This document shows, piece after piece, positions 3-19,487 of a stretch of DNA of 25,776 nt (the stretch's first letter is position 1; each line of letters begins with the position of its first letter). The stretch comes from a virus. The translations under genes and the position numbers were made by a program. Location: positions 1-25,776 of IMG/VR virus record IMGVR_UViG_3300026184_000051. The stretch is one strand, 5' to 3'. Below the pieces are notes generated by a model that was not told the DNA's origin, did no database searches, and worked only from the letters and a program-made list of their open reading frames with translations.

Positions 3-176
3 AAAGCGAACCTCACCCAGGTCGCGCTTGCCAAACGGCTCGGCATCCGCCAGCCCTCCGTCAGCGACTGGGGCCGCAATGGGATCCCGCTCAAGCGCCT
101 CGATGAGATCTCGGCCGCGACGGGTATCCCGGTGCTGGAGCTGCTCAATACAGAGCCTTCTGACAGAGCGGCATGA
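3..176 (+). CDS. Cro/YdaS-like helix-turn-helix repressor, 5' end missing
   Basis: The window opens inside this gene; 57 codons remain before the TGA at 174-176. The visible peptide has the classic HTH layout: LTQVALAKRLGI (helix 2 and turn), then RQPSVSDWGRNG (recognition helix), then PLKRLDEISAATG. This is the arrangement of Cro/CI and YdaS-type phage repressors, which bind operator DNA as dimers. It lies directly upstream of a terminator and O/P-like replication genes, the place lambda gives to cro, so a Cro-like role is likely (inference from context). The next ORF starts at ATG 173 and overlaps the stop as ATGA. The N-terminus and any promoter or operator lie outside the window, so Cro cannot be separated from another small HTH regulator. 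Confidence 0.75.
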   Translation, partial: KANLTQVALAKRLGIRQPSVSDWGRNGIPLKRLDEISAATGIPVLELLNTEPSDRAA

Positions 177-15921: not shown

Positions 15922-16284
15922 ATGTCACTTGATCCGGCAGAACAAATCACGCCGGGCATCGATATGGAACTCGGCGGCACGACTCTCACCGTGCCGCCGC
16001 TTCCGCTTGGCGCTCTTCGTGAGCTCGCGAAGTTCTCCGATGCGGCCAAGGATGGCGGCGTAGGGGTTCCGGAATCGATCGACGCCCTGATCCAGGCCAT
16101 GCACCGCACCCTGAAGCGCAACTACCCGAGGATCACGATCGAGGAGATCGAGGATCTGATCGACGTGAATACCGCGATGCGCATCTTCGGCAAGCTCGGG
16201 CAGCTCTCGGGGCTCTCTCCGCAGCAGGCCGAGGGGGCCAAACCGATGGGGGAATCGAATGGGGGAAGCTCTACGGATGGCTAG
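15922..16284 (+). CDS. Tail assembly chaperone, short form (gpG-like)
   Basis: A 120-aa protein with GGGAGGGAAGGA before ATG 15922. It opens with a strand pair (ITPGIDMELGGTTLTVPPLP) and continues with helices (LGALRELAKFSDAA, ESIDALIQAMHRTLKRNYP, IEEIEDLIDVNTAMRIF). This is the form of tail chaperones that coat the tape measure during tail assembly, like lambda gpG. The last 10 residues (ESNGGSSTDG) are low-complexity and lie over the frameshift region, as expected. A longer form is made by a -1 shift. Confidence 0.85.
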   Translation: MSLDPAEQITPGIDMELGGTTLTVPPLPLGALRELAKFSDAAKDGGVGVPESIDALIQAMHRTLKRNYPRITIEEIEDLIDVNTAMRIFGKLGQLSGLSPQQAEGAKPMGESNGGSSTDG

Positions 16285-16547
16285 TCGCCTCGACGGGCTG
16301 GTCGTACGAGTACATCGACTCGTGCGTGACGCTCGCCGTCGTGGCGGATCTCGGCAGCTATTTCGAAGAGATTCCCCCGACCCACGTCTCGGCGGCGATC
16401 ATCGCCCGGTTGCTCGGAGCCGATCTCGATGCGACGGGCACCGAGAAGCCGCGCGAGGATGTCCTGGTAAATCCCACGATCGAGGACATGATCGGCGCCG
16501 GCCTCGTCTCCCAAGAGGCGGCCGATACCGTGCTTTCGAAACCGTGA
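15922..16547 (+). CDS. Tail assembly chaperone, frameshifted long form (gpGT-like)
   Basis: A second frame, -1 relative to gpG, is open through the end of gpG to TGA 16545-16547. It encodes a conserved-looking domain right over the gpG tail: EWGKLYGWLVASTGWSYEY, then VADLGSYFEEIPPTH. This has no start codon of its own in the right place; GTG 16326 falls after conserved residues. A -1 shift at the first GGGGGAA (16248-16254) gives a 208-aa product, 110 from G and 98 from T. Lambda G/GT and most long-tailed phages do the same. Exact shift site is inferred; coordinates cover both frames and are not one reading frame. Confidence 0.72.
16246..16267 (+). promoter_or_regulatory. Programmed -1 frameshift region
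   Basis: ATGGGGGAA occurs twice, at 16246-16254 and 16259-16267. Read in gpG frame the first is ATG GGG GAA, so G_GGG_GAA can slip back to GGG GGA; it enters the T frame as GIEWGKLYG. The second copy is in a different phase. G-rich runs of this kind are used by tail chaperone genes of other phages. Which copy is used cannot be settled by eye. Confidence 0.55.
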
Positions 16548-16549
16548 AA

Positions 16550-16792
16550 TCAGGGCTGAGTACCGAGCTCCGAGGCGAGGCGTTTGCCTCGCGGGCTATC
16601 GAGCGGGACGAGGTTTGTCGCCCCGCACTGCCTGCATCCCTTGTAGCGGCTAGAAACGCGCCACAGCGAGTAGATGAGGCCCGGGATCAGGAAAAGAAGC
16701 CACAGGACGAGCTCTATCAGGATGCTGCCTTTCGTGAAGGTCTTTGGGACGCCCGTGGTGCCGCAATTCGGACAAATCGAAGCCTTCGCCAT
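16550..16792 (-). CDS. Antisense moron: zinc-knuckle membrane protein
   Basis: An 80-aa gene on the - strand. The open frame extends to 16945 but real coding starts at ATG 16792, preceded by GGGGGA in the - strand. Two CxxC knuckles, CPNC (C7, C10) and CRQC (C53, C56), flank one hydrophobic helix of about 22 residues (SILIELVLWLLFLIPGLIY, 23-41) with Lys at its start and Trp-Arg at its end. The C-terminus (LVPLDSPRGKRLASELG) is polar. The layout recalls LITAF-like zinc ribbons, where paired knuckles hold a membrane-embedded helix. It is the only antisense gene here, fits exactly between the T frame and the tape measure, and has its own promoter, the definition of a moron. Its function is unknown; host-envelope modification or superinfection exclusion are guesses. 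Confidence 0.8.
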   Translation of the reverse strand: MAKASICPNCGTTGVPKTFTKGSILIELVLWLLFLIPGLIYSLWRVSSRYKGCRQCGATNLVPLDSPRGKRLASELGTQP

Positions 16793-16819
16793 CGTTTTTC
16801 CCCCAGGGTGAGCAGCCCA

Positions 16820-16848
16820 AGTATAGACCAGGAGGCGCGCCATGTCTG
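16820..16848 (-). promoter_or_regulatory. Promoter of the antisense moron
   Basis: Read on the - strand: CAGACA (16848-16843), 17 bp, TATACT (16825-16820). The -10 matches consensus at 5 of 6 and the -35 at 4 of 6, with ideal spacing. Transcription would start near 16812, about 20 nt before ATG 16792. The -35 overlaps the start codon region of the tape measure gene, so the two may interfere. Confidence 0.6.
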
Positions 16849-19487
16849 ATGCCACCGACACACTACTGGTCGAAATCCGCGCGTCGCTCGAGGGCTTTCG
16901 CGCCCAGATGAGCGAGGCCGCGGGAGTCGTCGAGGAGAACACCACCCGGATGACCGCCGCGCTCGATTCGGTTAAAGGCGCGTTAGCCGGCCTCGGTGGT
17001 CTTTTCGCCGCTTACCTCGGGGGCGACGCCGTCAAGCACATCGTGGACGCGAATATCGACTTCCAGCAGATGTTCTACACGCTCGAGGCTGGAACCGGGA
17101 GCGCGAAAGGCGCCGGCGACATGCTGAACTGGCTCACGCAGCTTTCGATGTCGCTCGGCATCAACCTGCGCACAGCCGGCCAGCAGTTCGGGATGATGCT
17201 CGCCGCCGCCCAGGGGCAAAACATCAGCGTCCAGTCTATCCAGGGCCTGTACCTGGGACTGGCGAAGACCTTCGACATCATGCACGCCAAGACCTACGCC
17301 CAGCAGCGGGTGATGTACGCCTTTAACGAGATGATCTCGATGGGAACGGTTCGCACTCGCCAGTTCCAGCGGATGCTCTCGCAGGATCTCCCGGGCGTCC
17401 CCTGGCTCAAGATTGCGAGTAACGCCCTCGGCGTCACGGAGCAGCAGTTCGACAAGCTCCTGAAGTCCGGGCAGATTACCGCGAGTGAGCTAATTCCGAA
17501 AATGGCCGAGGGGCTTAACGAATGGGCCGGACACAGCGACGCACTCAAGGGCGCCGTCGGTGGCCTGAACGCGACGATCAATCGATTCAAGACCGCTATC
17601 TTCGAAGCGACGAAGAACGCCGGCGACGGATTTATCGGTGCGCTCACGGCGATGATCGACCAAATCACGAAAGTGATGCAGGTACTCGACCCGCTGAACA
17701 AATCCGTCGGCGATACCGGGGATCACTTTACCTGGCTCCGCGATGTCGTCAACGCCGTCGTTACGGTCTTCGAAGCGCTCGCAGCGACGGTAAAGACGCA
17801 GTTCACGCTGATCTTCGCGATCATCCGGACGGTGATCCAGGCGATCGTCGCCGGCTTTCACGAGATCGTCGGCGCGGCGCATATCGTCGCGCACGCCTTC
17901 GACCTTCTCATGCAGGTAATCGGGAACTTCGTCTACAAGACGCGTGAGGGGTTCTCGAATATCGGGGCGGCGTTCAAGGATGCCTTTACCGGGCACTTCG
18001 CCGCCGCGAAGGATGCGCTCGGGCAGACCGGGGCGGCATTCAAGAGCGCATTTACCGGCGGCGATCTCCAGGGGCAGCTCAAGCGGTTAAGCGGCGATCT
18101 CTCCTACATGGGGAAAACCGGAACGACCGCCGGTAACGACATCAAGGCGAACTGGATCGCCGCGGCCTCCGAGATCAGCGACGCCTGGTCGAGCGCTTCG
18201 AAGAAGATGGGCGCCGTCTGGAATATCAGCCCGAACGAGGCAGCGATCCCGAATGCCCCGGCCGGCGCCGGCGTAAGCCACGCAGCGAGTACCGGTATAT
18301 CCGAGGGCGATAAGAAGAACACGATGGCCGCGATGCAGACGCAGCTTCAGGCGGCGCAGAAGGCGAGCCTCGAGCGGCTCGGTATCGCACGCGCCGAGGT
18401 CGCGGAGTCGAAGATCCTCTTCGGCGAGAAGTCGACCGAGTACCAGGATGCGCTACGGCGCATGAATACCGCGCAGCAGCAGTACGAGGCGCAGCAAAAG
18501 CAACTCGACGAGCTCGACGTCGAGCAGGCGAAGCAGTCGGCGCTCGCCCGGGTCGCCTCCAAGCGCCAGGAACTCGATCAGCTCCGCGCGCTCGGACAGA
18601 TCTCGGCAGCGGAGGAAACCCGCGGCCTGATAAAGCTCGAGGACGAGAAGTACAAGATCGAGCTCGCGGCGCTCGATAAGAAGCTCGCCCTTAACGAGAA
18701 GGACAAACTCGATACGAAGCGCACGCAGCTCGCGATCGATGCGCTTGAGCAGCAGCACGCGCTGCGGGTCCAGAAGCTGAACAACCAGATGGTGCGCGAC
18801 GTTCAGCAGCATTGGCTGCAGATCTTCTCCGCGGTCACGAACGCCGTCGACCAGTCCGTGAAGGGACTGATCCGCGGCACGACGACCTGGCATAACGCGG
18901 CGCGGAATATCTTCCAGTCGATCCTTGCGGAGTTCATCGACATGGGGGTGAAGATGGTCGCGCATTGGCTCGCGACGCAGATCGCGATGACCGGCGCCAC
19001 GGTCGCTGGCGCGACCGCGCGGACCGCGGTCGAGGAGGCGGCGAACAAGAAAAGCCTGCTCTCGACCGCCGCGACGGTTACGAAGCAGATCCTGATGCGG
19101 ATGTGGGCGGTGATGACCGAGGTCTACTCCGCGATCGCCGGGATCCCGTACGTCGGCCCGTTCCTCGCCCCGGCGATGGCGATCGCCGCCGGCGCCCTGA
19201 TCGCCTCCTGGGCCGGGCGTGTGGCGTCTGCCGCCGGCGGTTGGGCGAACGTGCCCGAGGATCAGATGGCGATGGTGCACAAGAACGAGATGATCCTCCC
19301 CGCACCACTCGCCGAGGGCGTTCGGAACATGATCGGGCAGGGCGGCGCGGGCGGCGGCGCTACGCATAACTGGCATATCCACGCGGTTGATGCGGCAGGC
19401 GTCAAGCGGTTCTTCCTTGACAACCAGGACGCGCTCGCGGCGGCGTTGTCGCGAGCCTCACGCAACGGAGTATTCATGGCACCATGA
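16842..19487 (+). CDS. Tail tape measure protein
   Basis: An 881-aa protein with AGGAGG (16830-16835) 6 nt before ATG 16842. Residues about 60-225 show the tape-measure N-terminal domain: NIDFQQMFYTLEAGTGSAKG, LSMSLGINLRTAGQQF, RQFQRMLSQDLPGVPWLKI, ASNALGVTEQQFDKLLKSGQ. Hydrophobic helices follow (VVTVFEALAATVK, FAIIRTVIQAIVAGFHEIVG), then a long coiled coil of about residues 480-650 rich in Ala/Gln/Glu/Lys. Membrane-like segments occur near 710-800 (VAHWLATQIAMTGATVAG, PFLAPAMAIAAGALIAS), and the end matches the usual tape-measure C-terminus (GGWANVPEDQMAMVHKNEMI). The protein sets tail length and may span the host inner membrane at injection. At about 1.5 angstrom per residue it predicts a tail of roughly 130 nm (rule-of-thumb inference). 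Confidence 0.95.
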   Translation: MSDATDTLLVEIRASLEGFRAQMSEAAGVVEENTTRMTAALDSVKGALAGLGGLFAAYLGGDAVKHIVDANIDFQQMFYTLEAGTGSAKGAGDMLNWLTQLSMSLGINLRTAGQQFGMMLAAAQGQNISVQSIQGLYLGLAKTFDIMHAKTYAQQRVMYAFNEMISMGTVRTRQFQRMLSQDLPGVPWLKIASNALGVTEQQFDKLLKSGQITASELIPKMAEGLNEWAGHSDALKGAVGGLNATINRFKTAIFEATKNAGDGFIGALTAMIDQITKVMQVLDPLNKSVGDTGDHFTWLRDVVNAVVTVFEALAATVKTQFTLIFAIIRTVIQAIVAGFHEIVGAAHIVAHAFDLLMQVIGNFVYKTREGFSNIGAAFKDAFTGHFAAAKDALGQTGAAFKSAFTGGDLQGQLKRLSGDLSYMGKTGTTAGNDIKANWIAAASEISDAWSSASKKMGAVWNISPNEAAIPNAPAGAGVSHAASTGISEGDKKNTMAAMQTQLQAAQKASLERLGIARAEVAESKILFGEKSTEYQDALRRMNTAQQQYEAQQKQLDELDVEQAKQSALARVASKRQELDQLRALGQISAAEETRGLIKLEDEKYKIELAALDKKLALNEKDKLDTKRTQLAIDALEQQHALRVQKLNNQMVRDVQQHWLQIFSAVTNAVDQSVKGLIRGTTTWHNAARNIFQSILAEFIDMGVKMVAHWLATQIAMTGATVAGATARTAVEEAANKKSLLSTAATVTKQILMRMWAVMTEVYSAIAGIPYVGPFLAPAMAIAAGALIASWAGRVASAAGGWANVPEDQMAMVHKNEMILPAPLAEGVRNMIGQGGAGGGATHNWHIHAVDAAGVKRFFLDNQDALAAALSRASRNGVFMAP

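What the first reader, a model, noticed from the sequence alone, without database searches (positions are those of the whole stretch)
16550..16848. Antisense zinc-knuckle membrane moron between chaperone and tape measure
It is the only - strand gene, with a good promoter (CAGACA-N17-TATACT) whose -35 overlaps the tape measure start and a ribosome site at the right distance. Two CxxC knuckles flank one membrane helix, a LITAF-like plan. G/GT and tape measure are almost always adjacent in long-tailed phages, so the insertion is striking. Expression from the prophage could change the host membrane or block other phages. Late transcription across it would silence it, so it should work in lysogens.
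Basis: partly seen in the sequence, partly recalled or inferred. Interest (0 to 1): 0.75.

Follow-up and report, generated by a model that had tools for sequence, protein, structure and literature searches.

The report
Zinc-ribbon membrane moron beside tape measure
A small gene read backwards inside a phage's tail gene cluster encodes a zinc-binding membrane protein from an uncatalogued family that phages repeatedly carry either beside the gene for the DNA-injecting tape measure protein or beside a repressor-like gene, which suggests it lets a dormant phage stop rival phages from injecting DNA.

Summary
An intact 80-aa minus-strand ORF (16550-16792) lies between the tail-chaperone frame and the tape measure gene (TMP). 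It has a 9/12 sigma-70 site overlapping the TMP start, a ribosome site, and two CxxC pairs around one hydrophobic, P-G-centred helix. A family profile built without it scores it 104 bits (E 6.5e-32).

It belongs to a large uncatalogued family (107 viral, 90 bacterial-genome pattern hits; 12 invariant residues) and misses Pfam's LITAF cut-off. Family genes recur in two phage places. One is beside TMP (30/108 viral loci); there 47% carry an extended -10 element (controls 3%) and 17/25 a terminator-like site (controls 3.7%), so they look like self-contained morons. The other is on the 3' side of a CI-like repressor (24/108, always 3'), as expected of lysogen expression.

The nearest relative has an empty site. 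In related tails the slot often holds unrelated envelope proteins; in two phages it holds another antisense CxxC-TM-CxxC protein.

Best explanation: a prophage-expressed superinfection-exclusion protein acting at the inner membrane on TMP-dependent DNA entry. It would work like HK97 gp15, without detected sequence kinship. Anti-phage activity and TMP targeting are inferred, not shown.

The parts
16550..16792 (-). F gene: 80-aa zinc-ribbon membrane protein (ATG at 16792)
16763..16774 (-). first zinc knuckle CPNC (residues 7-10)
   Evidence: second Cys invariant and first Cys at least 90% in 102 aligned members
16658..16726 (-). hydrophobic stretch SILIELVLWLLFLIPGLIYSLWR (residues 23-45) with invariant E27, W31, F34, P37-G38, Y41, W44-R45; matches the second half of Pmp3
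   Evidence: (helices 24-33 and 35-47)
16625..16636 (-). second zinc knuckle CRQC (residues 53-56)
   Evidence: invariant
16800..16804 (-). ribosome-site-like GGGGG, 7 nt before the ATG
16820..16848 (-). sigma-70-like promoter CAGACA-N17-TATACT; -35 overlaps the TMP start codon
16548..16841 (.). 294-bp moron insert between the chaperone T frame and TMP; absent in relative L201, where the two genes overlap by 8 bp
15922..16284 (+). tail assembly chaperone (G-like), phrog_7947
   Evidence: role from position
16326..16547 (+). T-like continuation in the -1 frame (open from about 16233), phrog_8018
16842..19487 (+). tail tape measure protein (881 aa)
   Evidence: Pfam TMP_3 E 6.7e-19, PHROG tape measure E 2.5e-31

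Best explanation
F is a moron: a self-contained gene inserted beside the tape measure gene of a temperate long-tailed phage and expressed from the prophage. It makes a small inner-membrane protein in which two CxxC pairs form one split zinc ribbon on the cytoplasmic side, while the helix broken at Pro-Gly dips into the membrane as a re-entrant hairpin. In the lysogen it interferes with the step in which an incoming phage's tape measure protein engages the inner membrane and opens the way for DNA, so related phages are excluded (superinfection exclusion). Shown here: the gene, its promoter-like site, the family, the moron layout, recurrence next to TMP and next to repressors, and exchange with other envelope proteins in the slot. 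Inferred: zinc binding, hairpin topology, lysogen expression, anti-phage activity, and TMP as target.
For: (1) Family profile hit E 6.5e-32, with 12 invariant residues across 102 members. (2) TMP lies within 2 kb of F in 30/108 viral loci; in 21 of 22 independent clusters where a TMP was detected it is within 3 genes, against 9.8 expected within the same loci, P < 1e-4. The neighbours tested are PHROG tape measure proteins of many families. (3) A CI-like repressor lies within 2 kb in 24/108 viral loci, F always on its 3' side and 19/24 on the same strand; representative = HTH + Peptidase_S24. This is where lysogen-expressed genes sit. (4) TMP-side copies have an extended -10 element in 47% against 3% of gap-matched control genes (p 2.6e-8), and a terminator-like site in 17/25 against 38/1019 control genes. 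(5) Empty site in L201 and in L259, L260, L263, L264 of another clade. (6) In relatives the slot holds other envelope-type proteins: BamE-type lipoprotein (L231), signal-peptide proteins (L219, L229), zinc-ribbon + TM proteins (L218, L222, L224, L226, L261, L262), TM protein (L215, L221, L254). (7) A different CxxC-2TM-CxxC protein lies antisense in the same slot in L202 and L208. (8) Precedent from papers: HK97 gp15, TP-J34 Ltp and P22 SieA are membrane-side exclusion proteins blocking DNA entry, with escape through tape measure changes for Ltp and HK97 (PMC10883804); SNIPE meets TMP at the inner membrane (PMC13190303).
Against: No phenotype, transcript or localisation data. 54 of 108 viral loci are near neither a detected TMP nor a repressor (many are short or truncated). 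Chromosomal copies exist outside recognisable prophages (for example Nitrotoga next to pyruvate phosphate dikinase), so the family is not exclusively phage. A crude test of TM-protein excess in the 2 kb before TMP in related phages was not significant (23/119 against 24/193, p = 0.07); the slot-exchange argument rests on inspecting the variable genes. No integrase or complete repressor is in this partial window. PADLOC has no match for the window protein.
Confidence: 0.5

Rival explanations
1. Tail-assembly blocker: F is expressed in the lysogen and binds newly made tape measure protein of the invader, blocking tail assembly (as JBD26 Tab does) rather than DNA entry.
For: Tab is an 83-residue moron in a late operon, constitutively expressed from the prophage, whose target is TMP (PMC10884400). 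Same size class; TMP adjacency.
Against: F has a strong conserved membrane segment and cytoplasmic-type zinc knuckles, and alternative occupants of the slot are envelope proteins. A phage making its own F late would risk its own assembly unless it is self-tolerant.
Confidence: 0.15
2. Tail or injection co-factor: F is a structural or assembly partner of TMP made late in infection.
For: Recurrent TMP adjacency, mostly sense strand just 5' of TMP (20/30).
Against: Close relatives lack it at the same site (L201; L259, L260, L263, L264); many members sit beside repressors, not tails; own promoter- and terminator-like signals; here it is antisense to the late genes.
Confidence: 0.08
3. Host-modifying moron unrelated to phage exclusion, for example a membrane-potential or stress modulator like Pmp3/YqaE, or a zinc/redox-sensing membrane protein that benefits the lysogen.
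For: 68 of 102 members match Pfam Pmp3 over its second helix; chromosomal copies outside phage context.
Against: Only about half of the 49-position Pmp3 model matches (25-47) and the zinc knuckles are foreign to it; does not explain the TMP association.
Confidence: 0.2
4. TMP-side position is only a permissive insertion hotspot, and F carries an unrelated function (for example anti-defence or lysis timing).
For: The slot tolerates many unrelated inserts, including a transposase-like gene (L220) and KilA-N/BRO-type genes (L215-L217).
Against: Repressor-side copies and the envelope character of most alternative occupants point to lysogen envelope function.
Confidence: 0.07

Closest known systems
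HK97 gp15 superinfection-exclusion moron (Cumby et al. 2012; cited in PMC10883804 and PMC13190303; details of its position and YebO-like N terminus from my own knowledge)
   Same: Small predicted inner-membrane protein encoded as a moron within the tail gene region; prophage expression; tail tube or tape measure as suspected target
   Different: No YebO-type match in Pfam; F has two CxxC knuckles around a Pro-Gly helix; F family also occupies the repressor neighbourhood and can be antisense
Ltp lipoprotein of phage TP-J34 and Sie2009 (PMC3952083, PMC10883804)
   Same: Exclusion proteins encoded beside the lysogeny genes (ltp lies between integrase and a cI-like gene); Ltp's target is TMP
   Different: Lipoprotein or other fold; Gram-positive hosts; F is a zinc-ribbon membrane protein
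JBD26 Tab tail assembly blocker (PMC10884400)
   Same: 83-aa prophage-expressed moron in the late operon that targets TMP
   Different: Located between terminase genes; acts on tail assembly; no relationship by sequence tested
Pmp3/YqaE (PF01679)
   Same: Hydrophobic helix with Pro-Gly, residues 23-45 match the second half of the model above its cut-off
   Different: Pmp3 is a two-helix proteolipid without zinc knuckles; only half the model matches
LITAF-like zinc ribbon (PF10601)
   Same: Plan CxxC - hydrophobic segment - CxxC
   Different: Window protein scores 18.4 against cut-off 23.8; 10 of 102 members reach E 1e-3; eukaryotic endosomal family

Membership tests
Phage moron (gene with own transcription signals inserted between genes adjacent in relatives) | Genes flanking it are adjacent in a close relative | tested here: met
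   L201: T frame and TMP overlap by 8 bp; flanking proteins 40-85% identical
Phage moron (gene with own transcription signals inserted between genes adjacent in relatives) | Own promoter | tested here: met
   Promoter-like site, 0 of 60 shuffles as good; family beside TMP 47% against 3%. Consensus match only, no transcript
Phage moron (gene with own transcription signals inserted between genes adjacent in relatives) | Own terminator | tested here: not met
   None in the window; present in 17/25 TMP-side family members, which is not this copy
HK97 gp15-type superinfection-exclusion protein | Sequence kinship to gp15/YebO | tested here: not met
   No such family among Pfam hits of the window protein at E 1 or of 102 members at E 1e-3
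HK97 gp15-type superinfection-exclusion protein | Encoded in the tail region beside TMP | tested here: met
HK97 gp15-type superinfection-exclusion protein | Blocks DNA entry of superinfecting phage | not testable with these tools
   needs plating and ejection assays
zf-LITAF-like (PF10601) | Score above Pfam gathering cut-off | tested here: not met
   18.4 bits against 23.8
Pmp3 (PF01679) | Score above gathering cut-off over the two-helix domain | tested here: inconclusive
   23.7 against 22.9, but only model positions 25-47 of 49
Known anti-phage defence families (PADLOC-DB 2.0.0) | Model match | tested here: not met
   No match for the window protein; one of 102 members at E 0.009
Split zinc ribbon with membrane hairpin | Both CxxC pairs on one side of the membrane, joined in one zinc site | tested here: inconclusive
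   AlphaFold2 pLDDT 84, pTM 0.56, strands 17-19 and 50-52 flank two short helices; coordinates not available; no PDB match below E 1e-3

The most novel reading that the evidence does not exclude
The site just 5' of the tape measure gene is an exchange slot for self-matched exclusion proteins. Phages swap unrelated envelope proteins there (zinc-ribbon membrane hairpins, zinc-ribbon TM proteins, BamE-like lipoproteins), each tuned to the entry route of the neighbouring tape measure protein, and the same F family is deployed from the repressor neighbourhood in other phages. F would be a new structural class of entry blocker.
Probability: 0.3. Interest if true: 0.8.

Novelty: new variant of a known kind. 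Interest (0 to 1): 0.6.

Why it matters
Exclusion proteins that stop DNA entry are known from a handful of phages and none shares this architecture. A family of about 200 pattern hits in phages and bacteria of many phyla, placed recurrently beside either the tape measure gene or the repressor, gives a directly testable set of candidates. It also points to a place in tail clusters where other such genes can be looked for. How tape measure proteins cross the inner membrane is an open question, and natural inhibitors of that step would be tools for it.

Tried and rejected
tblastn of several family members in the phage and plasmid collections found no relatives (weak chance hits); the low-complexity filter may mask the hydrophobic core, so absence there is not proven. 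Foldseek: one unnamed viral protein at E 1e-4, nothing in PDB below 1e-3. A plain two-hexamer promoter scan gave no family-wide excess; the extended -10 test was made after seeing aligned upstream regions, so it is post hoc, although large. The excess of TM proteins before TMP in related phages is not significant as a whole-zone count (p 0.07). The family tree is poorly resolved (75 columns): at least 9 changes between TMP and repressor neighbourhoods, taken only as a hint. LITAF membership was rejected by cut-off. One row of alignments A1/A2 was a made-up consensus from memory used only as a probe; it entered no result. The HK97 gp15 paper itself is not held in the library.

Full report
What is there. 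The window is a 25,776-base IMG/VR virus record with no host genome. It runs from a Cro/CI-type HTH gene at its left end through replication genes (DnaD-like, P-like helicase loader, NinB) to terminase, portal, head and tail genes, the order of a lambda-type temperate phage; no integrase or complete repressor is inside. All credible genes are on the plus strand except one. That gene, here called F, is 16550-16792 (-), 80 aa, MAKASICPNCGTTGVPKTFTKGSILIELVLWLLFLIPGLIYSLWRVSSRYKGCRQCGATNLVPLDSPRGKRLASELGTQP. It lies between the -1 frame continuation of a tail chaperone-like gene (ends 16547) and the tape measure gene TMP (starts 16842). Its promoter-like site CAGACA-N17-TATACT (16848-16820) overlaps the TMP start codon and its spacer contains the TMP ribosome site; none of 60 shuffles of the upstream 120 bp reached its score.

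The family. A single-protein search found only a near-identical fragment of the same phage. A degenerate DNA pattern for W-x2-F-x2-PG-x2-Y-x2-W found 107 stretches in viral contigs, and all encode the same core; nearly all have a CxxC on both sides, with the spacing between the two CxxC starts 46 residues in 97 of 103. Residues outside the pattern are also invariant (the Gly and Glu before the helix, the Arg after it, the four Cys in nearly all), so the family is real. The same pattern finds 90 stretches in 84,980 bacterial and archaeal genomes of many phyla, including candidate phyla; nine genomes checked each hold one copy. A profile made without the window phage gives the window ORF 103.7 bits, E 6.5e-32, alone among 473 frames. 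Two thirds of members (68/102) match Pfam Pmp3 over its second helix and 10/102 match the LITAF-like zinc ribbon at E 1e-3; the window protein passes the Pmp3 cut-off narrowly and fails the LITAF one. PHROGs holds at most weak matches and PADLOC none for the window protein.

Where phages keep it. Neighbouring genes were called with a self-trained script and key neighbours identified with PHROGs and Pfam. In 30 of 108 viral loci a TMP lies within 2 kb of F; the neighbours tested belong to many different PHROG tape measure families. F is 5' of TMP in 23 (20 sense, 3 antisense, the last including the window and its near-identical fragment) and 3' of TMP in 7, all antisense. In 24 of 108 a CI-like (HTH or S24) repressor lies within 2 kb, F always on its 3' side and on the same strand in 19. 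Some of these repressor calls may be HTH-only proteins. Against random placement in the same loci, F lies within three genes of TMP in 21 of 22 independent clusters with a detected TMP (9.8 expected, none of 20,000 draws as high), and within three genes of a repressor in 13 of 16 (6.2 expected, P 0.00025). The remaining half of the loci are near neither; many are cut short. Twelve neighbours among these still hit repressor or regulator families and five hit tape-measure-annotated families, so the two classes are lower bounds.

Moron signals. F of the TMP class has an extended -10 element upstream in 47% (17 genes with a gap of at least 40 bp) against 3% of 91 gap-matched control genes of the same loci (p 2.6e-8). 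It is followed by a terminator-like hairpin with T run in 17 of 25, against 38 of 1019 control genes. The repressor class shows little promoter excess (17% against 11%), as expected of co-transcribed genes. The promoter test was framed after seeing alignments. The window copy has a promoter-like site but no terminator-like one.

Empty sites and exchange. In L201, the closest relative by tail genes (proteins 40-85% identical), the chaperone frame and TMP overlap by 8 bp with nothing between. In another clade (TMP 62-69% identical) the slot between major tail protein and chaperone is empty in L259, L260, L263 and L264, holds F in L258, and holds other zinc-ribbon + membrane proteins in L261, L262 and L265. 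In the L024 clade, with tail genes 75-95% identical, the slot 5' of TMP holds F (L227, L233) or a BamE-type lipoprotein (L231, L232, L234, L235, L239), a signal-peptide protein (L229) or no such gene (L228). In the L010 clade it holds F, zinc-ribbon + TM proteins sharing the N-terminal MQCPKCxYEPT module (L218, L222, L226), or other TM or signal-peptide proteins (L215, L217, L219, L221, L224). L202 and L208, more distant relatives of the window tail, hold an unrelated 137-148 aa protein, CPKC/CPNC - two TM helices - CIKCG, antisense in exactly the same chaperone/TMP gap as in the window. A whole-zone count of TM proteins was not significant (p 0.07), so the exchange argument rests on the listed cases.

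How it most likely works. The position beside repressors and the own transcription signals beside TMP point to expression from the prophage. The protein is small, cytoplasm-facing by its charges, and membrane-embedded. AlphaFold2 gives two short helices broken at the Pro-Gly, flanked by strands 17-19 and 50-52 (pLDDT 84, pTM 0.56). If the four cysteines share one zinc, both ends must lie on one side and the helices form a hairpin; this is inferred. TMP is the tail component that reaches the inner membrane during DNA entry; HK97 gp15, TP-J34 Ltp and P22 SieA block that step from the membrane, and changes in TMP overcome Ltp and, with the tail tube gene, gp15 (PMC10883804). SNIPE associates with lambda TMP at the inner membrane (PMC13190303). 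The most economical reading is therefore superinfection exclusion at DNA entry through TMP. Confidence 0.5 for this full statement. The main rivals are a host-modifying moron, a Tab-like assembly block (PMC10884400) and a tail co-factor; the last is disfavoured by empty sites and by the repressor-side copies.

Verdict. The finding is real.

Noticed in passing
L202:2868-3281 (-) and L208:922-1368 (+): A second, unrelated zinc-knuckle family (CxxC - two TM - CxxC) lies antisense in the same chaperone/TMP gap in two phages.
   Followed up: partly
L231:3569-3919, L232, L234, L235, L239: A BamE-domain lipoprotein with lipobox occupies the slot just 5' of the tape measure gene in close relatives of an F-bearing phage.
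   Followed up: partly
L010:268-672, L218:2404-2769, L222:2707-3450, L226:1642-2358, L262:2676-3401: An N-terminal module MQCPKCxYEPT..CxxC is shared by slot proteins with otherwise different membrane C-terminal parts: domain swapping in the slot.
   Followed up: no
L112, L146, L150, L160, L179, L184, L190 (Nitrotoga and Gallionellales): F lies next to a pyruvate phosphate dikinase-like gene in several species, apparently a chromosomal, non-prophage copy.
   Followed up: no
window 16230-16330: The chaperone gene and its -1 frame continuation (WGKLYGWLVASTGW...) overlap at two GGGGGAA runs, a likely -1 frameshift site; the exact slip point was not determined.
   Followed up: partly
L220:2068-3408: A transposase-like gene (446 aa) sits between F and the tape measure gene.
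   Followed up: no
L118, L120, L135, L163, L185: In some bacterial genomes the F core is part of an open frame of 400-450 aa, possibly a fusion protein.
   Followed up: no
window 3-176: The left end of the record is a Cro/CI-type HTH gene, possibly cut by the contig end, so the repressor of this phage is probably just outside the record.
   Followed up: partly
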